Assembly (NCBI GenBank): GCA_001632425.1
Contig: KV425568.1
Span: 133,981 to 197,980, forward strand
Source of the DNA: Neolentinus lepideus HHB14362 ss-1
Lineage: Eukaryota; Basidiomycota; Agaricomycetes; Gloeophyllales; Gloeophyllaceae
DNA length: 64,000 nucleotides
Reading direction: 5' to 3'
Part shown: one piece after another, positions 2,938 through 19,665 of the stretch
Numbering within the stretch: the stretch's first letter is position 1
Layout: every line of letters starts with the position of its first letter
Translations under genes and position numbers: made by a program
Notes under the pieces: generated by a model
Databases searched by the model: none
The model's input: only the letters and a program-made list of their open reading frames with translations
What the model was told of the DNA's origin: nothing

Positions 2938-3567
2938 GTGCGTTTGCAAAATTCAAAAAAGTCTTCTTGTGGCGTCCGTCCCCTCCTGGATGAAGTTTTC
3001 GGCCTTGCTGTGGAGTACATAGACGGATACACGCTGGAAGATGTCCAACGCCACAACGACCTTTCCGAGGCGAAACGCAAGGAGATGTCACAGTCAGTCT
3101 TGTCCATCGTTAGGACTGCTCGGACACTTGGTGTTATTCACGCCGACATCAGGTCACCGAACATCATGTTTCGTCGCTCAGACCTCTCAGCCGTGCTCAT
3201 CGACTTTGGCTATACTATTTTACGTGGCGCTGACATGTCCGACGCTACGTGGGCCAGCAAGGTGCGATCCTGGTCTTCCATGTGGGGCACGCGGTTGCTC
3301 TTGAAAGACACTTTAATGCACGACCCAACCCCCGTAGCGTACTCGGAGCGGAAAATGATGCCCAGCCCATTGACGGGTTGGAAGGCATATAATGAACTGA
3401 GAGAGACGATGAATCCTTCGAGGAGGGATAAATATTGGATTCGCACTCAACTGCATGGGCCGGCATGGATCCTGGTTAAGGATGATGATCGTACCGTCCA
3501 TCAATGGCATATGCGCCAGTGGGAGATCAAACCAGGGGCCAGACTGGTAGAGGACGATGATATATAA
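2938..3567 (+). CDS. protein-kinase-like C-lobe protein, N-terminus not found
   Basis: A single open exon whose frame is closed upstream by a stop at about 2920 and which has no ATG near its start (it opens with GTG), so a 5' exon is either missing or unrecognised. It contains LAVEYIDGYTLEDVQ, then a catalytic-loop-like VIHADIRSPNIMF (H-x-D...N) and a DFG-like LIDFG. These are the hinge, the catalytic loop and the metal-binding loop of the protein-kinase fold. The glycine loop and beta-3 lysine of the N-lobe are not visible. After the kinase part come about 110 residues rich in charged and aromatic residues. Such small kinase-like proteins are common in basidiomycetes, often as decaying family members. 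It could be a real gene with unseen 5' exons or a truncated copy. Confidence 0.5.
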   Translation: MRLQNSKKSSCGVRPLLDEVFGLAVEYIDGYTLEDVQRHNDLSEAKRKEMSQSVLSIVRTARTLGVIHADIRSPNIMFRRSDLSAVLIDFGYTILRGADMSDATWASKVRSWSSMWGTRLLLKDTLMHDPTPVAYSERKMMPSPLTGWKAYNELRETMNPSRRDKYWIRTQLHGPAWILVKDDDRTVHQWHMRQWEIKPGARLVEDDDI

Positions 3568-4120
3568 CTGCGGACATAACTGCCTATACTCTCGTGCTAG
3601 CCGTAAGACTCGTTTTTATTGACTACTCTGTGTATTTGTTTGCAATACTGCTACAGGCTCGACGTCAGTGAGGAACCAGGTTACGACTATCTCAGGGTCT
3701 CTTCGTAGGTATAATGTCTCGGGTCTCGGCATGGGTGGCACTACGACGGTATGGGATGGGCCCGAGGGTGGGCGTCAGGGCAGGAAATATTTGTTGAGAG
3801 GATTGCGATATATAAATGTAGCAAGCTTGTGCGATGGTATATGTCGTGAGTTGGGAGTGTAAGTATAGGTAGTGATGACAAAAGGTGGACATCGTTGCAA
3901 CAAGGAACAGCAATGTAGGGGCCTGTACAATCGTAGCAGAGTCATTTGAGATACGGAATCCGGGCGTAACTCCGAGCTAATACTGATAGACATGTTAGTC
4001 ATGATTGTAGGGCAGACCGAGGTTTCACAACGCACCGATTTATCGAGTAACACGCCCATGCACTTATCCTCGCACGACACGGTGATCATTTATAAAATGC
4101 ATACCATCAATGAGGATTCT
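3568..4120. other. intergenic, no gene recognised
   Basis: About 550 bp between the kinase-like gene (+) and the BTB gene (-), which converge here. It probably holds both 3' regions. Short open frames (for example 3668-3862) have no recognisable motif. Confidence 0.35.
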
Positions 4121-7141: not shown

Positions 7142-7159
7142 ACCTCATCAGCAAAATGC
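7142..7159 (+). repeat. left terminal inverted repeat (candidate)
   Basis: CATCAGCAAAATGC at 7146-7159 matches the reverse complement of 19649-19662. The preceding TTGAG at 7137-7141 is a candidate target-site duplication. Confidence 0.6.
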
Positions 7160-7215
7160 TGATGCCCCTTTCTGAGATCTTGCGATCTTATTTGATCTTA
7201 TTTTGGTCGCTAAGG

Positions 7216-7826
7216 CACTAAGATAGCATTAAGGAGAAGTAAGCCAAGTCTCGTCTTATTTTGTCTTGATCAGGTCTAGCGACGTCTGATTGGCACTTAC
7301 GTGGCTTAAGGTTTAGCTTAGATCGGTCTTAAGAGTGTTCTTAGACACGAGTTTAAGCAGGTTTAAGCAGGTTTAAGCAGGCTCAGACATTGCTTAAGAT
7401 CGGGCAAGTCATGCAAGATCATAAGGATTAAACAGATTATAGGGACTACATGTGTTCATAAGACGAACTTAAGAATCTGTAGACACAAGATAAGCAGCAG
7501 CAGTCGGATAAGAGACATAAGAATTAATCAAGAGGATACGCAGAGGTTAGTGAAGCACGCAGCAGTACAAGAAAGCAGACCGAGACACAAGGTGACAGCA
7601 ATGAAGACAAGACAAAAGAAAGAATACCCGCGACCATGGAGGTAACAGAGACACGCTACAGCAGACAAATGACGAGACGCCAGAGGTGAATGACATTTGG
7701 CAGACCATGTCCAAGTCGAGGACAGAGACCTGCGCCACGACAGGCCTAAGATCTCGAGAGATCCTAGAAATATGCTGAGGTGTCAGATGGCAGTAGTTGG
7801 ATGGGAATGGATGAAGACCTACTGAC
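7216..7826. repeat. left subterminal region with a 3x 10-bp direct repeat
   Basis: No gene here. The region is dense in CTTAAG, TTAAGC and CTTAG motifs and includes three perfect tandem copies of GTTTAAGCAG at 7351-7380. CACTA-type elements carry short subterminal repeats that bind transposase; that role is inferred. Confidence 0.5.
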
Positions 7827-10800
7827 TTATTCAGCGTCGGAGTCATCACATCCGAGCAGCGCCCTCGGATCTTCATCAGAGTCATAAGCGTTGATGACTT
7901 GGACACGTCGAGAAGCCGCGCCGGCAATATTCAATGCTGTTGAGATCAGGGGCTGAAGCTGGATCGGCTTGCGATTCACAGCACATTTCATCCAGGCCCG
8001 TGTGCTTTTCTCGTACTTGGAAGCGTTGAACTTATCCGCCTCCTTCTTGGCCATCCTGGGACCTGCCCCATTCTCCTCTGTACCAGAGTCATCCGTCTCG
8101 TCAGACTTGGGACCTCGCAAGAGAAACGTCTTCCCAGTCTTCTTTGATACTGCAGCTTCACGGTCCTTCCACTTGGTCAGGATCCGCTCAAGCTTGTGAA
8201 CATGTATCAGTAGATAAACAGTACGAATGATTGATGCAACATACTGCGCAGGCGGAGAGGGCGATGGCTCCAATCGGCAGCTTCTCCTCACCATTTTCGT
8301 CAAGAACCTCATCAATCATAAGATCCGCGCCGGACTTGAAATAGGAGTAATGATACGCAAGAGTGCCAGCCATCGAGGGTGAGCACAGGACACCACGCCA
8401 TTTCTATTGTATCAGGTACTGTTAGCACTGTATCAGATGACGACAATAAACCCACCTTGTGATTGATGTGACTGGCGTCCGAGTAGACAAACCGAAAATT
8501 GGTTAAAGCATGCTCAGCGAACTTAATGCGAGCGGCATATGTCCCATACTCTCTGGCCTTGCTCTGAAAGTGCGAGTCGATGACTTGAATTGCTGCCGTG
8601 CCAAACCCACTTCTCCATTCGTAGATCTTTTGCTTAATCTATTATAGTATAAGGGTTAACTTATCAGTAATTGAAAGGGAAGGAAAAGCGCCGACTCACC
8701 CTGGAGTAAACGGGATCTTTTGCTTGAATCATGATTGGCCCGTATTTCTTGCGAAAGATAGAGTTGTATGCCGACTGTAGCACGGGTACAAGGTGTTGAT
8801 CATCAATAACCCACGGATTTTGTCGGGTAGCCATCCAGCGGAGGACAGTGGTGGTGAATGCCCGTCTCCACAGAATGTCTTCTCCGATACCTTTAGGAAG
8901 CTGATTGTTTTTTACCTTTCCCTTTGCGTGAATAACTGCGCCCTCGATATCCGGGTAAGACTCGGCTTCTGAGACAGACAGGTTCTTGTCATCATCCGAG
9001 TCATCAATGGAAATCACCTCGTCAGATGCACCAGGAGGGACTTGGATGTCGTCGAAGCCCACTTCTTGCTTGACGGCAACCGTGTCAACAATCTTCTTTG
9101 AGATCTGTGGGAAAGAATCAGCACGTACAACATGATCCAGACGTCATAGCCACATATGCTTACTGCTAACTTGTCCTTTTCTCCGGCCTCCTTTCCATCC
9201 GTCTCGCGTTCAATTACACCGGCACCCATCTAACGGTAGTGTATTACATGTAGTAGTATAAATTCTCAAAAGAACTCACCATATTTGTCGTCCGCTTCCG
9301 GGGCTTAATGGGCATGGGTGTCACAAGAACGCTGTCATGCTTGCGAAGCTTGGTCATGGAGGCATCAGAAACTCCAGCCTCTGAATCGACAATGATGATA
9401 GAATTCTACGATACAATTAGATATAGTGCGCAACCAATGACAGAGCTAGTAACTACTTACTTGCTGCGTGAGACGAGCAACTGGCGTCTTCTCCGGAGAA
9501 GCCATTGCCGCATCCCGTTCATCAGTATCATAATTAATGAAGTAATCCATGTCGTCCATGGGTGCTTCTGGCTCAGTGGCCAAGTTCTGATTAGACGTGG
9601 GCAATGGCGGTGGGTCGTGCAACCGCAGTGGGTCGTGCAACCGCAGTGGGTCATTCGACTGAGGTTGCCCGAATGTATTTGTCGAGTTCACATACGCAAG
9701 CAAGTCCGGTGCACGTTGTCCAACATTTGACTCGGATGCAGACTGGAATTGCATTCGGCGGGTAGAGGCATGTGCGAGAAGAGGCGAGTTCATAGACTGC
9801 CCGGACATGGGCCATCTTTCTCTCAGCATTGCATACTTATCTTGGGCGTTCTTGCCCTTGAGGATACCCAGGGAAGTCGATGACTGATTGCGATCAGCCC
9901 TAACACGATGTTATCACATGTGAAATCAAGGTTGAGTTCTCACTCTATGACGTACCACACTGTGTTATTGGTTGGCGTATTCTCGTCCTCAACATGTTGC
10001 CCACCAGTAACGACCCATGAGGACTGGGGCCTTGCGTATCCTGGCTTCAATGACATACTTTGGTATTCGGTTCCTCCTGGCTGGGGAGCCTGCGTGGCGA
10101 TCTGTGTACGCTGCTGCTCAACAGCATCACGAAAGGAGTTTGAACGAGCTGAGTGCGTTGCCGTCTTCACCTTCTTTCGCATCTGCAACTGTAGAGCTTT
10201 TGCAGAGTACTGTGAAGCGTCTGTCTCCATTCCTGTTGTCTCTCCATCGTCCGACTGCTGTCCAGAAAGGGTGTCCATCTCTGTGTCATCAAACGTCTCC
10301 TTGCTGTTATCCTTTGAACGAACAGCTTTAATGCCCGGCTGTGGGTTGGGGATCTGTTTGCCCCTAGCCCAACTCGAAGACTGTCCAGTGGGAACAGGAG
10401 TATCTGACTGACTGGGCGCCCAGTCTGCACATTCACGGAAGTCAGCGATGGCATACGACCGCTTGAGTGGACGTAGGGTAGGGTGATCAGCGACATCCTT
10501 GACCCGGTTAGCCCTACGCTCATTGTCCCCTCTAGCAACGTCCTCCTCCATCAGTGCCAATTGGAGCTGCACTGCGCTCCGAGCAGCATCTGCTTCAAGC
10601 AGAGCCTGCTCCTTCACCTTGGCCGCATCCTCTTTAGCCCTCCTACTAGCTTCTTTTCGGGCCCGTCTCTCGAGCTCCTTCTCCTGTCGGATGCGGTTGG
10701 TTTCCTCATCTTTCGCCTTCTTCATCTCTGCCTTGACTCTCCTGGCCTCCGCCTCCACTTCCTCCTTCTGGGCCTTCTTCCTTTCCCTCTCCTGTTCCTT

Positions 10801-10944
10801 CTCTTGTCGCTGTAGCTCCTTCTGCCTTTTTTCTGCTGCAACCTCTTCCTTGGTACGTCGTTGTCTTCGCTGTGGCTTTTCGGTACCTGAATCCCCGTCT
10901 GCAGGCCCATGGGCAGCTTTGGTCCTCTTGCCCTTTGCCACCAT
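7827..10944 (-). CDS. transposon-borne DUF6532-like protein with basic coiled coil
   Basis: A multi-exon gene starting at the ATG at 10944-10942 and ending at 7827, with introns near 9953-9901, 9460-9407, 9282-9230, 9171-9105, 8697-8641, 8456-8407 and 8243-8195. All exons are open in frame, giving about 840 aa. Residues ~20-130 form a highly charged K/E/R-rich coiled coil, followed by a Ser/Pro/Gln-rich linker with a small repeat (DPLRLH twice) and an acidic VISIDDSDDD motif resembling a SUMO-interacting motif. The C-terminal third has LWRRAFTTTVLRWMATRQNPW, RFVYSDASHINHKKWRG and AGTLAYHYSYFKSG...PIGAIALSACA, resembling the DUF6532 family of agaricomycetes. It is transcribed away from the transposase and shares a 247-bp promoter with it, so it is probably the element's second gene. 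Its molecular role is unknown. Confidence 0.78.
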
Positions 10945-11191
10945 TATCGCGTCAAAGATTTGAGTTAACAGCTTTAGTACTAGGGATAGTATGGTGAGAG
11001 GAATGAAGACAATGAGTATTGACGTGGCTCAAAAGAGGTTGAATTCAACCAGATGACGGCATCTGAGTCTCCGAAATCCGCCCCCCGCCACTGGCGGGCG
11101 CTAGTCCCGTCTGGTCAATTTCACTCTAAGTCCCGTTCTTCTACAGTATGCTCAGTATATTTGTCTATAATACTGCTTCAACTTTGCTAGA
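10945..11191. promoter_or_regulatory. divergent promoter inside the transposon
   Basis: 247 bp between the start codons of the DUF6532-like gene and the transposase. It includes a GC-rich stretch (CCGCCCCCCGCCACTGGCGG at about 11080-11099) and would drive both genes. Confidence 0.45.
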
Positions 11192-14100
11192 ATGAGCTCT
11201 CCGCTCCGTAGCTTGTTTTCTCCAACAAGGACGGCCTCACCGAGCTTCAAATGTGCTGAATGTGGAAAGTATTGCCGAAGTGCAGGAGGATTACAGAAGC
11301 ACTTGCAGCGGAAACACCCCTACATACCTCCAGCAAATGCCGCGCATGTGCCCGCACCAGCAACCGGACTATCTACAGTATTTAATCGTCTATTTGGGTC
11401 CCCTGCAAGAGCTAAGCTCCCAAACAACAAGACACCATCCCCGAATGCGAAAGCACCATCCCCGAATGACGACTCACCATTGCCACCCACTGACCACCAT
11501 CCTAAACCTGCAGAATCATCCCCGGGCTTCACATCCTTTGACCAGCCTCTAGTATCACCAGGATACCAGGCATCTGACTCGGAGCTGCTCCGATTACCAG
11601 TGACCCCCACACATTGTGTACTTCAAGAGGATGCTGACAGTCGCAGATCACCTGCCTCGTCCTTATCTCCAATCTCCGCTGACGGCCTTGACTACATGGA
11701 CAATATCTTTCACCCAAACTTCTACGACTATATTGATGTCAATCCGTTTGCTCCTATCAGCCAGCCTGAGGAACGTGCTGAAGAATCATATTCAGATGAA
11801 GATGACTTCATGAGTGAAGACAATGATTTCACAGATCACAACCAGGATGGAATAGACCACAATTTACCTGAAAATTGTCATTCGGACGAATCAGCGAAAA
11901 ATCAGAGCAAGATACGCGTAGTTTATCATCCAGAGCTAGACGGTAAGTTCCTGAAGCCCATGTCAATTATGCTACTCTATATAACATTTATTCTAATAGG
12001 TGTGCCCTGTGATCGCAATGGACAGCCCCTGCCGGCAAATCCAGGGCAGACAAAGTCAAGCCAGACACCAGAATTTCCCTCTTCTTCAGGCTCACCGTCT
12101 TCATCCCCCTCTCTTGCCGACAATTCTTGGGCGCCGTATCCAAACAAATCAGCCTTCGATATCGCGGACTTCCTATTTACTCAGGAGCAGATGTCCGCTG
12201 GGAAGATCGATATACTCCTGGACATTTGGGCGTCGCATGCAGTTGAGTACGGTGGGGATGCGCCGTTTCGCAATGCTCGCGAATTATACAGGACAATCGA
12301 TTCAACAACTCTCGGCGATGTAAAGTGGGAATCGTTCACTATCAAGTACCAAGGCCATCAACCTCACCACGACATTCCAGATTGGATGACGGCTGGCTAT
12401 GAGGTGTGGTATCGTGACCCTCTTAAGATTGCGCGTCAGATGCTCGCGAACCCTGACTACAATGGCGAGATCGATTACTGTGCAAAACAGGAGTTTATTA
12501 ACGGCAGTCGACGTCTTAAGGACTTCATGTCTGGTGACTGGGCTTGGAGCCAATCAGTAAGTAGCTGTTTTAACCACTCCCATACACACTAAGTAACCTC
12601 TTGTGCAATTTAGAGTAAAATTGCCAAGGATCCAGAAACACATGGCTCGACATTCGTACCTGTAATCCTCGGTAGCGACAAGACCACAGTCTCAATCGGT
12701 ACCGGAGATAATGAGTATTATCCTCTCTACATGATGCTTGGTAATCATCACAATAATGTGCGCCGAGCGCATCGTAATGCAATCACAGTTATAGGGTTCT
12801 TAGCAATCCCAAAAAGTAGGTTTTATGCCCTAACTGTGAATTTATCATTATAATATTGCATATAGCCAGCCGACGCTATAAAAATGATGTCAAGTTCCGT
12901 AAATTTCGCCGGCAGTTATTTCACGTATCATTGTCAAGAATCCTACAGAGTCTTAAGCCTGGCATGTCTACACCCGAGGTGACGCTCTGTGCAGATGGTG
13001 CATTTCGTCGTGTCGTATATGGACTTGGGCCCTACATTGCTGACTATCCGGAGCAAGCACTTCTCGCCTGCATTGTGCAGGGCTGGTGTCCCAAGTAGGT
13101 TTACATTCATCTGCTCATCTCTTTGCTTACTAATACAGGGTTAACTCGAAGGTGCACGGCTCGTAGAGGAAAATTGGAAGGTGATGGCCCATGTATTCGA
13201 CGGTGCGCTGAGCATACCGAAGCTCTAGTCCAGTGCATGGATCTCGGGACTTTATGGGACGAGTATGGTGTAGTTGGTGACATTGTGGTGCGTATTAAAG
13301 TTTCCATTTCATTCATATTCTGTGTTATTCTTCATTTGTACGTCAAGATACTTTTAGACTGCTTGAGTACTAATCGTGGGAACTTCTGGTTCATTGTGCG
13401 CCATCTACGACACCACTTCCCCACCTCACAAGCATGCTCGCACGATGGGCCTCTACGACACCACAAAGTTCACTCCAGCCACGTCACTCAGAGAATGCAG
13501 GACGGTACCAGGAGCAGTGATCACCCTGGCTCTGGCTTTGGGAAGGGTCCCCGACTTTTCTGTCCGGGGTACTCATGATCACTGTTCATCAGGTTACCAA
13601 TGGCTTCTACGAGTGACCAGGATCTCTTTCTTATTCAACAATTACTCTTCCCTCTCACATCTACGCTCGCTCTTTCTTCATTGTCCGCCACGTCTGCGGC
13701 CCTACCTACTTAAATGTCTGAAGAAACGAGCATAAGACCCTCTCGGAAGGGCAAGGAACGTGAACAAGACCTGGCGCAGCGTATATTCGCTCTGTAACGG
13801 ACGAAAGCAGCGTGCGTATATTTTCTCTCATGCGTTGATGCTAGTGGCTCTTTCCGTATGCCGTTGCATGGCGTACAGTAGGGATGGTGTTCCTGGACGG
13901 TGGTCTAGTCCACAGTCTCGGTATAGTCATCCTGCGGTACGCCTGCACAGTATGCAGAAGGAGCCAAATATCTCGTTAACTCATACTAACGAGCCTTTTT
14001 AAAACAGTGCCATCAGGCCCAAAGAGCGATCAGAACGACTCGCACCGGCCTCTACCGTAGAGGCCTCACCAACACTCATTACAGCCCGAACGCCTATGGA

Positions 14101-17100
14101 AAGACGATCAGTCGAGAAAGCATCCTCATCTACGACGCGCACATCGCAATCACACACTTCTCCACCCCGCAAGCATGTTCCAACCTCCCCGCCTCGTGTC
14201 CTGGTCTCCGGCACCACAATGGACCGTGAAGATCTGGATTTCTCTCGCAGGTTGAAGATCAGCCATTCCCCTCGACCATCCCCCCACGCTCACGACGCCA
14301 CCCACCACACATCCTCGAAAAAGCTCTTCAACCCGAATCTGGACCCCATTCCAATGCGTCGAACCGCGGAGCCGGAGTTGATTTCCGATTCCCAGTCCAA
14401 CTCCTCCTATGTCCAAGTCTCTCAGACATCTCCGCACTCCCGCGAACCTCTCGCACATCGACAGCTCTTCGATCATCGAAAGGACAATCCAGTACGCTTC
14501 GCTGTGCTCGCGCGCCCCTCTCGTCATGACGGCCGCCCCACCCCAATGCCTAAATCATATGGCGATTACGTCTCGGCATCTTCCACCTCATCGTACGCTC
14601 ATTCGGTGGCGTCTAGCTTTACTCTGTCATCCAGCACTACAGATGGCTCCTCAACTCGCTCGGCACTATTCGATCAGTGCAAGCCTTCACAAGAGTCGAG
14701 TGGCAGCAGCAACAACGCCTTTGCACAACAGTTGAAGAAGCTCTACAGAGCTATCTCTGCGCTCGAAGATCGGATAACTAAGGAAGATGGCGACGTAGTC
14801 AACGGCGAAGACAGTGTCGCACGAGATGGGCCGAGGAGGAATGGGGTCGTGCTTAAGGCTAGGAATGCACAGGAAGCAAAGGAGAAGGAAGACGAGGCAG
14901 AGCAGGAGAAATGGAGGAAGATTGTGCAGGACCACAAGGCGTGAGTCCCTTCCCTCCTCGTCTTTGCAATGCATCTCATGTGCTGGCCCAGACTGGTCGA
15001 GATGATGCACAACCGGCTCGAGATCTCGCTCGCCCCGAGCGTCCCCACCTCCCTACGCAACATCCCGCAGAAGTACAACATCATCATCCGGCTCTGGACT
15101 CACGGCTTCCACAAGCTCCTCGAAAACCTCCGTCGTTCATCCTGGGACTCTAGCGTCGCCTTCGAGCACCTTCAAGAGTTCATCTACTATGCGTACACAT
15201 TCTACACCGGCCTTCTTGAAGAGACGACACTTGATGCCCACCGTCTCAGTTGGCTCGAGGCGCTCGGGGATCTCGCGCGCTATCGCATGGTCGTCACCGA
15301 TATGGCGACGAAAGCCTATTCCAAGAGCCAGCCTCAAGCATTGACTGTCGATGCGCTCTCGCAGCAGGCGGCGATCACTAGCGATACGACGCCCGCGACG
15401 AAGAGCAAGGCGAGCATAAGCGATAAGCCGGCAGCGCGGATTGACGACTCGGACGGGCCGAGTATCGGGCTGGCAGCGGCGCGCGCGATGGATATCGAGC
15501 CAGAGAAGGAGCGGTGGAGGGGGATTGCGAGGGAGTGGTACGCGACGGCGTTGGCGGAGAAGCCGGTGGAAGGGAAGTTGCATCATCATATGGGGCTTCT
15601 CTGCCGGGAAGTCGAGGCTGAAGAGCTTCGTGCCGTCTATCACTTCGTGAAAGGGTTAGTACTTTTCCTGCTACGCAAGAGACACAAACTAATGAATGAT
15701 CATTGCAGCATGACGACTCTACATCCCTTCCAGACCTCGCGCGAGAATGTTCTCCCACTCTGGTCCCCCTCTGCCCAAGCAAGACGCTCGCATCCCGACG
15801 CCCGTGTCACCGATCTTTTCGTTCTCCTCCAGGGCATGCTCTTCACGAACATTCAGCTGGATGATTTCCCAAAGTCCTTGGATCGCTTCCTCGAACGACT
15901 AGATCTGGACGGCGCGGAAGAGCGCGAGTGGATCATGATGGCTGTGATCAACATCGGCAGCATCCTTGAGTACGGACGGCCTGGCGGTGTTCTTCGGAAG
16001 ACGGATGTGCTCGGCCTGGGTATCGGCGCGAGCACTACGGGCGGGTCTTCAGCGGCGAAGGTGAAGCTTGCGAAGAAGCCCGAAGACGATGGCGACAGGA
16101 GGATGGACGTCGACGATGACGGTGAAGCGATGGTGACTTCGCCAGCGTTATCAGAAGCCGCTGCTAGCGTTGTCGAGGCGCCTGAGCTCCCTCCCGCGTT
16201 CAAGCTCGCGCTGCAGCTCACCTTTTCGATGCTCTCGCATGCCCTACGGAGGCCAACTCGCAAGCCGTCGGTGCTTCAGAAGCCCACTCTCAACCCTTAC
16301 ATCACCATCATCCTGACCTTCCTCGCGACGATCCTGCGTCACGAGTCCATTCGCATTATTCTTGAGCGTTCAGTGCCTCGGGAGGACCTCACGGCGTTCT
16401 ACACGCGATCGGTCCCTTCGACTGTAATCACTCATGAGGAGAGCGCTCGGTGGACAACGCTGACCAGCGGCTGCCGTCCCCTTCCTGAAGACTGGTGTGT
16501 CCGGGGCATGGAGTGGGTTGGCCGCAAGGTCTTCGAGTGCGGATTCTGGAATAAGGTACCTGAGAGCGACGCCAAGCACGCCGAGCTAGAGATGCTTGAA
16601 TGGCATGACATCCATGATGCTGATGGGATAATTGAGGATGAGGATGATGAGGACGGCAGCAAGAGGAAGTCAACTCCACAGTGTCAACGCTGGGTGAGGG
16701 CCGCCTGGGAGGGTGCTGCCATCGCACAGTGCATGGACGGCTTTGGCCAGGTAGACGATGCAGCTGAGTGGACCATCGGCGGCTCCCTGTCTGTCAAGGT
16801 TCAGTGGTGGAAAGAGGAAGAGCGGTTGGAGCACGAGGAGGAAGAGAGGCGACGTCAGGGCATGCGGTGGGGCGACAACGATTCCATGGACGTCGACGAT
16901 GATCAAGGTTCTAGTGACAATGACACTGACGAGGAGGACGAGGAAGACAGCGACGAAGTGAGGGAGCTCAAGGCTCGGCGCTGGTACCTCAAGAGTCTGC
17001 TGGAGTCCGCTCTGCAGTTGCCCCAGCGATGACCAGCACTGCGATCAGTGCGCAAGCCGAAGACGGCTGTGGATTCGCGTCCGTTACTCAAGGTAACTCC

Positions 17101-19400
17101 TGGGTATTCGGTCCTCGTCATCGATACCAACATTCTACTGTCATCCTTGTCTACGTTTCAATCTATGGTCGAGTCCCTCCGGTGGACGATTGTGGTTCCG
17201 CTTCCGGTCATAACGGAGCTCGATGGCCTCTCCTCGGCGTCCGATGTGCTCGAACTGAGTGGCATCGCATTGGCTGCGCTGCCTTACATCATGTCGCATA
17301 TCTGATCTCATTCCACCTCATTGAAGGTCTTGATGTCGAAAGGCAACTACCTCCGATGATGGCATTCCCTGAACCTGTACCTGTTGATGCTATGCCGATG
17401 TTCACTGTTTTGACCCCGCACTATAGCAAAAAGGTTAGCAGGCGTGAATTGTGGGTATAAGGTTCATGCTGACTCAGTTGTTTAGATTCTTTTGTTGCTA
17501 CATGAGATTATCCATGAGGAGGATCAGATGATGTATGTTATGCTGCTCAAGTACCTTGAGCAGCTGCACCCGGTCGAATGGGCCAACTTCGTCAAGGATA
17601 CCAAGATCTTGGCTGAGGAATGGAATGTGTATTTGATTTAGTTTGGTTCTTGTCTTCCCTTCTATCATTTCTTTTGGTTATAATATGTTTATGTCTAACT
17701 GTGACTGACATACTTTCAGCCTTTTACCAATGATTTCCCTCGTGCTGATATTCATGAGCTACTTTCTCCTGACCTCCTACATCAACTTATCAAGGGCACT
17801 TTCAAGGATCATCTAGTCGACTGGATCGGTGAATTCCTTAGTTTGCGACACGGCCCAGTACACAGCCAGGTGGTGATGACAGAGATTGATCGACGGTATG
17901 ATTGTTCAAATAGCATCATTTGGAGACTCACTGCCAACCCCAGGATTGCGGCGGCACCCCCTTTTACAGGGTTGAGAAGATTCCCTGAAGGGCGCGGGTT
18001 CAAGCAATGGACGGGTGATGACTCAAAGGCACTGATGAAGGTAATGTCCCACATTCAGTGACGTGATAGGACTTTACAACTTTGTGTGAGTTAGGTATAC
18101 CTGCCCGCTGTCGATGGTCTAGTTCCCAGTGAGATAGTCCGGACCATGCGTGCATTCCTCGAGTTCTGCTACATTGCTCGACGTGATGTGCATACTCCAG
18201 AAAGCCTTGATCAACTTGAGGAAGCAGTGGAGCGTTTCCATGACTATCGTGAGGTCTTTCAGGAAGAAGGGGTTCGTGTTGAGGGTTTCTCCTTACCTCG
18301 GCAACATTCTATAAAACATTACTATGATGCTATCTGGGACTTTGGGGCACCTAACGGCCTATGCTCTTCAATTACGGAATCAAAACATATTAAAGCAGTC
18401 AAAGAGCCGTGGCGGCGCTCTAATCGGTTCCAGGCATTGGGTCAAATGCTGACAACAAATCAGCGACTTGACAAGCTCGCTGCGAGCCGCGTTGACTTCA
18501 TCAACCGTGGAATGATTGAACAACCGAGCAAGCGTGAGTTGATTTTCCATAGTCATTTTGAATAAGCCAAAAATAATGTCATGTTCATAGCCAAGCAAGC
18601 CTGTCTCCCATCCACAGATGATGATGGTGCCATTGATGATCCACGATCCCCTGGATATGTTAAACTTTCATCACGCTTCAGTACGTACTTTACTTTCACG
18701 GATAATTCAAGTAGATTTAAATTATTTCATACTAGAACGCCAGCATCATTTCAATTCTGCCGCTCTAACTTCACATCCAGATCGCCCCACATTCAACCGC
18801 CTGCTGCGCGAATTCCTTCGCAATCAAGTCAATGCACTCAATCCATCAATGTTCCTCACCGAACTCCCGGTCTTTGATGAGCCCATTTTTATTCACTACT
18901 CCGCTGCTGCTACCTTCTACGCTCCAAGTGATCCATCTGGTATCAGGGGCATGCGCCGGGAGCATATCCGGGCGAATCCATCCTGGCGTGGAGGCGCTCC
19001 CCGCTTCGACTGTGTCTATGTCAAGCCAGAGGTATGTCATGAAGATTCACCCCATCCGCAATTTGATGTGGCAAGAGTCTTCATGTTATTTTCATTCAAA
19101 TTCCATGGTCAACAATATGAGTGTGCATTGGTCCACTGGTTCAAATGGACTGATTATCATCCTGATGAAGACACGGGGATGTGGATTGTTGACAGGGGTC
19201 ATGCCGGTGACGCAAGTCGTCCTGTTTTATCCATTATTCCTATACAGCGCATACTCCGAGCTGCACATCTTATCCCAATGTTTGGTCAGACAAATGTCCC
19301 TCCCGACATCAGCGCTACAGACAGTCTGGATAGATTTCGCCTTTTTTATGTCAACAAATACGTCGACCATCACGCATTCGAGATTTTACATTCACCGTGA
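11192..19400 (+). CDS. Plavaka-family transposase
   Basis: Nine exons: 11192-11942, 12000-12556, 12614-12815, 12866-13094, 13152-13287, 17720-18040, 18095-18533, 18591-18680, 18736-19400 (3,390 nt, 1,129 aa, no internal stop). The N-terminus carries a C2H2 zinc finger, [22 protein letters not shown] (quoted in part: C-x2-C...H-x4-H). An acidic Ser/Pro-rich linker follows, then the catalytic core with [49 protein letters not shown] and [18 protein letters not shown]. This order matches the Plavaka transposases of basidiomycetes. The splice between ...VVGDIV (exon 5) and [11 protein letters not shown] (exon 6) is in frame and restores the family sequence. The intron between them, 13288-17719, is 4,432 bp, about 80 times the others, and contains captured host DNA. 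The gene therefore looks coding-competent if that intron is removed. Confidence 0.85.
13288..13713. other. 5' part of the giant transposase intron
   Basis: Starts at the donor GTGCGT. It contains a short open frame (13376-13735) with no recognisable motif. It may be promoter or 5'-flanking DNA of the captured EST1/SMG6-like gene, or the original intron sequence. Confidence 0.35.
13714..17349 (+). pseudogene. captured EST1/SMG6-like gene (EST1 region plus start of PIN domain), three premature stops
   Basis: A host gene inside transposase intron 5, same strand. Exons: 13714-13811, 14008-14940, 14992-15654 and 15709 to about 17349; all splices keep frame. After a disordered N-terminus, residues from about 280 match the EST1 DNA/RNA-binding region ([59 protein letters not shown]). 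The C-terminal part begins a PIN nuclease domain ([16 protein letters not shown] with its Asp, [18 protein letters not shown]). That order is found in SMG6, the nonsense-mediated-decay endonuclease. Introns are kept, so capture was from DNA, not mRNA. Stops interrupt the frame at 13795 (TAA for CAA), 17030 (TGA) and 17303 (TGA); each fits one C-to-T change. The PIN domain is cut off at the junction with the next fragment. Confidence 0.8.
17350..17626 (+). pseudogene. captured fragment of a 1,3-beta-glucan synthase (FKS) gene
   Basis: Two exon pieces (17350-17433 and 17486-17626) split by a 52-bp GT-AG intron. They encode [20 protein letters not shown] and then [14 protein letters not shown]...[19 protein letters not shown], about 75 residues highly characteristic of the cytoplasmic catalytic region of FKS-type 1,3-beta-D-glucan synthases (family GT48), the main cell-wall glucan enzyme. 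The full protein is roughly 1,700-1,900 residues, so this is only a small internal slice with no start, membrane segments or end. It abuts the EST1/SMG6-like fragment directly and in the same orientation. The intron is retained, again pointing to capture at the DNA level. A functional synthase is impossible from this fragment. Confidence 0.85.
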
Positions 19401-19665
19401 ACTACTAGTGTAGTCAACTTGAAGTATATATTGCTTACTAGCATGTCTTTACTACTTAGCACACCGGATGTATTCCTTAGTAACTTTCAATGTACTTAGG
19501 ACACTTACTGTTGTCTTGTTTATCTTACCACGGCTTGGATAATCTTATATCTTATCTATTGCCGGACTTTCGGGATTAGCTGATCTTAGCCTACTTATTG
19601 TTACTTAGTGCCTGCGCTAAGACAAAAAAAGACACAAAAGTCAATTTGGCATTTTGCTGATGCTG
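19401..19665. repeat. right subterminal region and right terminal inverted repeat
   Basis: Non-coding DNA after the transposase stop, rich in CTTAG/CTTAT motifs. It ends with GCATTTTGCTGATG at 19649-19662, the inverted match of the left end, followed by TTGAG at 19666-19670. Confidence 0.55.

What the first reader, a model, noticed from the sequence alone, without database searches (positions are those of the whole stretch)
13288..17719. A transposase intron used as a cargo bay: two host genes captured inside intron 5 of a Plavaka transposase
The transposase reads in frame across nine exons (3,390 nt) only if 13288-17719 is removed as one intron. The flanking exons join as [17 protein letters not shown], the expected family sequence. 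The 4,432-bp intron, against about 50 bp for its siblings, holds an EST1/SMG6-like gene and an FKS fragment, both on the transposase strand with their own introns. Cargo in an intron would let the element carry host DNA without losing its transposase. Gene capture is known for Pack-MULEs and CACTA elements; placement inside a spliced intron of a Plavaka transposase is, to my knowledge, not a described pattern.
Basis: partly seen in the sequence, partly recalled or inferred. Interest (0 to 1): 0.9.

Follow-up and report, generated by a model that had tools for sequence, protein, structure and literature searches.

The report
Transposon carries host genes in intron
A family of jumping genes in a wood-rotting mushroom repeatedly stores pieces of the host's own genes inside one intron of its transposase gene, so it can carry host DNA around while its own enzyme apparently stays intact.

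Summary
Window 7146-19662 is a complete PlavakaB-type DNA transposon (14-bp TIRs CATCAGCAAAATGC, 2-bp TSD CT) of Neolentinus lepideus. Its transposase reads intact over ten exons (not nine; a 48-bp intron was missed; 1,113 aa) only if 13288-17719 is one 4,432-bp intron. That intron holds a 3.7-kb EST1/PIN gene fragment (host locus C7, 96%) and a 269-bp FKS fragment (C8, 90%). Both are partial; EST1 has an early stop.

The pattern recurs. Of ten related copies modelled, intron 5 is 2.5-6.7 kb in five and 51-98 bp in five; every other modelled intron is at most 233 bp. The five elements with the exact TIR all show long-intron cargo (Kelch, EST1, FKS, unnamed genes); a sister lineage has a cyclin fragment there. 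Copies with the same cargo, 99.4-100% identical, sit at different sites, so loaded elements have moved. Exons beyond the intron show purifying selection (dN/dS 0.07-0.20), which implies splicing; no RNA was available. The EST1 cargo shows a sharp age step without loss of colinearity, suggesting later exchange with the host gene. Transduplication is known; this placement I did not find in print.

The parts
7146..19662 (+). whole transposon, 12,517 bp, PlavakaB-type termini CATCA..TGATG, TSD CT/CT
   Evidence: exact 14-bp TIR found 10 times in the genome, reversed control 0
7146..7159 (+). 5' terminal inverted repeat CATCAGCAAAATGC
19649..19662 (-). 3' terminal inverted repeat
7144..7145 (.). 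target site duplication CT, left copy
19663..19664 (.). target site duplication CT, right copy
7530..11028 (-). region of minus-strand open frames, probably a second, divergent spliced gene of the element (ATG near 10943); not modelled; DUF6532 only at E 0.067, below cut-off
11192..13287 (+). transposase exons 1-5 (11192-11942, 12000-12556, 12614-12815, 12866-13094, 13152-13287)
   Evidence: PF18759 matches over cut-off
13288..17719 (+). intron 5, 4,432 bp, phase 0, GT-AG, CTAAC and CTGAC branch-like motifs near the 3' end
13288..13641 (+). 5' part of intron 5 without any other match in the genome (origin unknown)
13642..17353 (+). EST1/PIN gene fragment captured from host locus C7:413928-417645, 96% identity, sense to the transposase, ATG at 13714, stop at codon 28
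13642..16242 (+). young tract of the EST1 cargo, 35 differences in 2,601 aligned bases (1.35%)
16243..17353 (+). old tract of the EST1 cargo, 104 differences in 1,111 aligned bases (9.36%)
17351..17619 (+). FKS (1,3-beta-glucan synthase) fragment from host locus C8:232332-232600, 90% identity, sense; 3-bp overlap (CTC) with the EST1 fragment at the junction
17620..17719 (+). 3' end of intron 5 (no host match); its last part is alignable to other long-intron copies
17720..19400 (+). transposase exons 6-10 (17720-17895, 17944-18040, 18095-18533, 18591-18680, 18736-19400 with stop)
17896..17943 (+).

Best explanation
This is a complete, probably autonomous Plavaka transposon whose lineage uses intron 5 of the transposase gene as its main place for host DNA. 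Shown: pieces of host genes, copied as genomic DNA with their introns, lie in this intron in several copies; they come from different host loci and differ in age; loaded elements have transposed; the transposase frame is intact on both sides; the cargo decays mainly by C-to-T change at CpG. Inferred: the pieces enter by DNA repair that copies from ectopic templates (the sequenced junctions are tight, 3-bp overlap to a few bases of filler); only entries in an intron leave the protein intact, so those lineages survive; the intron is spliced out through conserved end pieces (GT, CTRAY 15-17 bases before the 3' end, AG); and once a piece of a host gene is present, homologous exchange with the host gene can renew or extend it, as the EST1 age step suggests.
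For: Ten exons open without stop. Intron 5 is 4,432, 2,798, 6,745, 3,091 and 2,540 bp in C18, C64, C29, C33, C10 and 98, 64, 64, 59, 51 bp in C83, C3, C42, C97, C129, same site and phase; largest other modelled intron 233 bp. Donor loci: C7 96%, C8 90%; C1 Kelch 92%; C11 98%, C10 85%, C1 93-94%, EST1 67-68% in C29; C15 cyclin 84-86% and C22 75%. Donor-to-cargo C>T/G>A against T>C/A>G: 74:36, 21:2, 93:26, 83:14, 40:12, 85:35, 29:6, most at CpG. Exact TIR 10 times, five elements, TSDs match CT, CG, TG, TG, TT. C29 and C4 99.4%, C64 and C130 100% identical through cargo and TIR, then different flanks. dN/dS of exons 6-10: C18-C64 0.07, C18-C29 0.08, C64-C29 0.20, C33-C10 0.19, C29-C4 0.18; pair with a decayed member C3-C42 0.90. 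First Met of exon 6-10 lies over 50 codons in, beyond the conserved [15 protein letters not shown] block. EST1 age step 1.35% / 9.36%, Fisher p 1e-28, in one colinear alignment.
Against: No transcript evidence. Introns of 2.5-6.7 kb are extreme for this gene, whose other introns are about 50 bp. Low dN/dS is not special to loaded copies: short-intron pair C97-C129 gives 0.08. In the two recent loaded pairs exons 6-10 are less constrained than exons 1-5 (0.20 v 0.04; 0.19 v 0.07), which could mean partial relaxation. C10 has one stop. The tree needs two changes of the long-intron label and short-intron C83 nests inside at 89/87, so one gain plus loss, or two gains. Cargo also lies outside intron 5 in C33/C10. 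No capture intermediate was seen; repair as the cause is inferred from few junctions.
Confidence: 0.75

Rival explanations
1. Neutral ballast: intron 5 became long once by chance, and a long intron is simply the largest harmless target, so pieces accumulate there without any tie to the element's life; the cargo does nothing.
For: EST1 cargo has a stop at codon 28; cargo decays by C>T; C10/C33 also have cargo elsewhere; long copies fall close together in the tree.
Against: All five elements with the exact TIR are loaded and 4 of 5 loaded full-intron copies lack stops against 2 of 5 short ones, so loaded copies are the better preserved ones; small numbers, and this does not show benefit.
Confidence: 0.45
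2. Two-protein transposase: exons 1-5 and 6-10 are now made as separate products, with exons 6-10 driven by a promoter in the cargo, so the giant intron need not be spliced.
For: No RNA evidence for the join; exons 6-10 are less constrained than 1-5 in the recent loaded pairs.
Against: Splice signals are kept at both ends in all five long introns; exon 6 opens with a highly conserved block before any Met; cargo upstream of exon 6 differs between copies.
Confidence: 0.07
3. Assembly artefact: host sequences were joined into transposon copies by misassembly.
For: Several related copies lie at contig ends (C4, C27, C64, C118, C130, C157).
Against: C18 and C29 hold the whole element in one contig with matching TSDs; cargo differs from its donors by 2-15% with a C>T bias and so is not donor DNA; the age step and stop are in the cargo only.
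Confidence: 0.02
4. The age step in EST1 reflects two separate captures, or conversion of the host gene by the cargo, rather than renewal of old cargo from the host gene.
For: Direction of exchange cannot be read from two sequences.
Against: The donor is colinear across the step at intron base 2955/2956, which two unrelated captures would not give; the cargo, not the host copy, has the stop.
Confidence: 0.35

Closest known systems
PlavakaB transposons of Agaricomycotina (PMC12730594, passages seen)
   Same: PF18759 transposase, CATCA..TGATG termini, 2-bp TSD; Plavaka is reported there to carry a foreign TET/JBP gene in some families
   Different: that cargo is an enzyme gene encoded beside the transposase; here decaying host-gene fragments lie inside a transposase intron. 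No passage seen there mentions intronic cargo (not the whole text read)
Pack-TYPE elements: Pack-MULE, Pack-CACTA (PMC8903248 and PMC13317346, passages seen)
   Same: capture of host gene fragments as genomic DNA, multiple donors per element, mobilisation of the fragments
   Different: Pack-TYPE elements are defined as non-autonomous; here the transposase frame is intact and the cargo sits in its intron
Cargo-bearing grapevine TIR elements (Cactavine-5, Pifvine-3, Hatvine-6; PMC2528002, passages seen)
   Same: transposase-coding families with captured fragments, shared by several copies
   Different: the described cargo lies beside the coding part (downstream of the ORF, long 5' region, variable region), not in an intron
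Tgm-Express1 in soybean wp (PMC1947982, passages seen)
   Same: captured gene fragments lie in an intron; a 6.44-kb intron could still be spliced correctly in some transcripts
   Different: the intron there belongs to the host F3H gene and the element has replaced its own interior; here the intron belongs to the transposase
Ipomoea Tpn1 CACTA family (PMC5105172, passages seen)
   Same: members of the wider CACTA group that capture host genic regions
   Different: the captured DNA replaces the interior; the loaded elements are non-autonomous
En/Spm of maize (recalled, no call)
   Same: the first intron of TnpA contains other coding sequence (TnpD), so a big gene-holding intron is known in the wider CMC group
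   Different: that is the element's own gene, not host cargo

Membership tests
Plavaka superfamily (PlavakaB) | PF18759 transposase domain | tested here: met
   four window stretches over the cut-off: 103.8, 94.7, 103.6 and 63.7 bits, the last beyond intron 5
Plavaka superfamily (PlavakaB) | termini 5'-CATCA..TGATG-3' | tested here: met
   criterion from PMC12730594
Plavaka superfamily (PlavakaB) | 2 or 3 bp TSD | tested here: met
   2-bp TSD in five of five elements, three of them paired across contigs by inference
Plavaka superfamily (PlavakaB) | placement in the PlavakaB clade of the published tree; catalytic D, D, E and C(2)C / H(3-4)H motifs | not tested
   no comparison with the published tree or residue check was run
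Pack-TYPE element | fragments of host coding genes between the TIRs | tested here: met
Pack-TYPE element | non-autonomous (no transposase match) | tested here: not met
   1,113-aa open transposase frame; criterion from passages of PMC8903248. It works like a Pack-TYPE element but is not one by that definition
autonomous transposon | functional transposase produced and able to move the element | tested here: inconclusive
   intact frame, purifying selection and near-identical copies at different sites; activity and expression not testable here

The most novel reading that the evidence does not exclude
Intron 5 works as a self-renewing cargo dock: a captured piece of a host gene gives homology through which the element repeatedly recombines with that gene, renewing and lengthening the cargo, while splicing hides the load from the transposase protein. 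Pieces of well-conserved host genes (EST1/PIN, glucan synthase, Kelch, cyclin) may in turn make silencing of the element costly to the host.
Probability: 0.25. Interest if true: 0.85.

Novelty: new variant of a known kind. Interest (0 to 1): 0.72.

Why it matters
How DNA transposons capture unlinked host genes is still open: the 2026 review whose passages I saw says there may be a yet undiscovered mechanism (PMC13317346). Here are loaded elements with intact transposase, identified host donors, captures of several ages, readable junctions and unloaded relatives in one 34-Mb fungal genome. That makes capture and cargo renewal testable. It also explains how an element could gain host DNA without becoming dependent on another copy for transposase, and it offers a natural test of whether a basidiomycete can splice introns of 2.5-6.7 kb.

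Tried and rejected
Independent Kelch capture in C64 and C29: rejected. Their cargo differs at about 8.5% of 1,704 sites, like the non-coding background between the two (7.6-11.5%), and they share 26 differences from the host gene, 18 of them outside CpG, so one capture before the split fits best.

Sense-only cargo: not established. Orientation could be read for seven captures, six sense and one antisense (the C22-like piece in C33), two-sided p 0.125. The strand of the gene at C10:313187 is unclear because both strands have open frames, so I left it out; one search had counted it as sense (7 of 8, p 0.07).

Cargo only in intron 5: true as far as tested for the window element. Its left 4,046 bp and its last 262 bp match only other Plavaka copies. 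Not true for the C33/C10 lineage, whose TIRs I did not find.

The nine-exon model: rejected for ten exons. My first nine-exon query gave false frameshifts in C64, C29, C4, C130, C33 and C10.

EST1 in C29 (67-68%) as proof of an ancestral EST1 load later renewed in C18: undecided, since independent capture of the same gene fits too.

The 514-aa insertion at the same joint in Lactifluus volemus P0086: its relatives are unnamed proteins, those named being from Lactarius and Russula; whether it is cargo, a nested repeat or a gene-model error is open. The 53-aa insert in P0084 may be a retained intron.

Papers: full-text searches (9 searches) returned nothing I could see describing host cargo in a transposase intron; I read passages only, of eight papers bearing on this (PMC12730594, PMC13317346, PMC2528002, PMC8978399, PMC1947982, PMC8903248, PMC4158355, PMC5105172), and of PMC4858842, whose three passages did not bear on it. 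PMC4158355 says no TEs were identified in CACTA transposase introns. Subscription papers are mostly not in the library. One search (Neolentinus lepideus with transposons) found no paper.
Full report
What it is. The window lies in G000, contig C18 (33.8 Mb, 168 contigs). The genome is Neolentinus lepideus HHB14362 ss-1: the named protein P0002 lies on a contig of 995,929 bases, the length of G000:C3, and its pieces match L016 from that contig at 97-100%. Window 7146-19662 is a complete transposon of 12,517 bp with 14-bp TIRs and a 2-bp TSD, CT. Termini and TSD fit the PlavakaB description in PMC12730594 (passages), and the PF18759 profile matches on both sides of the long intron.

The gene. The protein is then 1,113 aa over ten exons. 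Of 120 listed relatives, 118 are continuous across the exon 5-6 joint, and in 15 of the first 16 rows of the genome search the profile crosses this place in one stretch, so the join is what the family expects.

The same intron in relatives. I modelled ten copies across this site. Intron 5 is 4,432 (C18), 2,798 (C64), 6,745 (C29), 3,091 (C33) and 2,540 bp (C10) in one set and 98, 64, 64, 59 and 51 bp (C83, C3, C42, C97, C129) in the other; the largest other modelled intron is 233 bp, near the poorly conserved N-terminus. C4 and C130 show at least 2,994 and 2,075 bp of such an intron before their contigs end. All five long introns keep a GT start, a CTRAY motif 15-17 bases before the end and an AG end.

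The cargo. C18: EST1/PIN fragment from C7 and FKS fragment from C8. C64: Kelch gene fragment from C1. C29: pieces from C11 (98%), C10 (85%) and C1 Kelch (93-94%), and an old EST1 piece (67-68% to C7 and C18). C10 and C33: a gene with a Pfam cyclin match just above cut-off, from C15, with a further C22-like piece in C33. That is eight pieces from seven host loci; EST1 and FKS may have entered together, and C7 as source of the old EST1 piece is inferred. Kelch is best read as one capture before C64 and C29 split. Introns of the donors are kept in the EST1 and FKS fragments, so these were copied as DNA.

Direction and decay. Differences run from host C to cargo T (with G to A) in excess: EST1 74:36, FKS 21:2 (19 of 50 CpG positions changed), Kelch 93:26, 83:14 and 40:12, cyclin 85:35 and 29:6. 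The old EST1 piece of C29 shows little of this (53:34 and 7:10, with 86 and 15 transversions). This fits CpG methylation and deamination in the element, inferred. The EST1 cargo stops at codon 28, where the host gene is open. So no intact EST1 product is expected from it.

Mobility. The exact TIR occurs 10 times in the genome and its reversed control not at all: two ends each in C18 and C29, and one each in C4, C27, C64, C118, C130 and C157. I pair the latter into three elements by cargo identity and TSD; the five TSDs are CT, CG, TG, TG and TT. C29 and C4 are 99.4% identical, C64 and C130 100%, from cargo to TIR, and then the flanks differ. Loaded elements have therefore moved, and lately. 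For C27/C4 and C118/C130 the stretch between the two contigs was not seen.

Is it spliced? There is no RNA. Indirect evidence: dN/dS of exons 6-10 is 0.07 (C18-C64), 0.08 (C18-C29), 0.20 (C64-C29), 0.19 (C33-C10) and 0.18 (C29-C4), against 0.90 for C3-C42, of which C42 is decayed. Synonymous change is near saturation in the C18 pairs. Against an easy reading: the short-intron pair C97-C129 also gives 0.08, and in the recent loaded pairs exons 6-10 are less constrained than exons 1-5 (0.20 v 0.04; 0.19 v 0.07). Exon 6 starts with a conserved block that lies before any Met, so it should be read through from exon 5.

Ages within one cargo. In C18 the EST1 fragment is one colinear alignment with a sharp step: intron bases 355-2955 differ from the host at 35 of 2,601 sites, bases 2956-4066 at 104 of 1,111 (p 1e-28); the FKS piece differs at about 10%. 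The simplest reading is an older EST1+FKS load whose EST1 5' part was later renewed from, or exchanged with, the host gene. The direction is not proven.

Junctions. EST1 and FKS overlap by 3 bp (CTC). In C29 the C11 and C10 pieces are 4 bp apart; the two C1 pieces are 1 bp apart and skip about 370 bp of the donor. This fits repair with template switching or end joining; few junctions, so inferred.

Evolution. In a tree of 23 proteins the five long-intron copies and C83 form a group (97/96); C83, with a 98-bp intron, nests inside at 89/87; the long label needs two changes. So either one lengthening and a loss in C83, or two lengthenings. In C33 and C10 a DED1-like helicase fragment (closest C23:60124-61952, 81-86%) lies beyond the transposase gene in both copies (the name DED1 is recalled from the sequence, not from a family search). 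Intron 5 is thus the main but not the only cargo place in the wider clade.

Verdict. Gene capture by TIR elements is known; an intact transposase that keeps repeated, dated host captures in one of its own introns I did not find in the searches named in Tried and rejected.

Noticed in passing
L009 and L010 (C33, C10), beyond the transposase gene: A decayed DEAD-box helicase (DED1-like, name recalled) fragment shared by both copies, closest to C23:60124-61952; probable cargo outside intron 5.
   Followed up: partly
P0086, Lactifluus volemus, residues 311-824; P0084, Grifola frondosa, residues 556-608: Predicted Plavaka proteins with 514 and 53 extra residues exactly at the exon 5-6 joint; the first has relatives among unnamed Lactarius and Russula proteins.
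   Followed up: partly
P0094, Leucogyrophana mollusca: Predicted protein joining a Plavaka transposase to a C-terminal Kelch part that resembles the Kelch gene captured in N. lepideus; perhaps an insertion into or capture of the same gene.
   Followed up: no
window:42700-50020: Large nested inverted repeat, arms up to 342 nt at 77-96% complementarity around about 46.6 kb.
   Followed up: no
L009 minus strand, first 182 bases of L009:1-1852:-: A repeat of about 126 bp with some 30 further matches in the genome at 74-88%, MITE-like.
   Followed up: no
window:7530-11028, minus strand: Divergent second gene of the element; open frames and a weak DUF6532 match below cut-off; exon model not made.
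   Followed up: partly
L012:3389-4402, intron 5 of C29: An open frame of 338 codons runs from the C11-derived piece into the C10-derived piece, a possible chimeric reading frame.
   Followed up: no
window:13288-13357: The first 70 bases of intron 5 look like a small intron of their own (GTGCGT..CTTTTAG); its use would end the protein two codons on.
   Followed up: no
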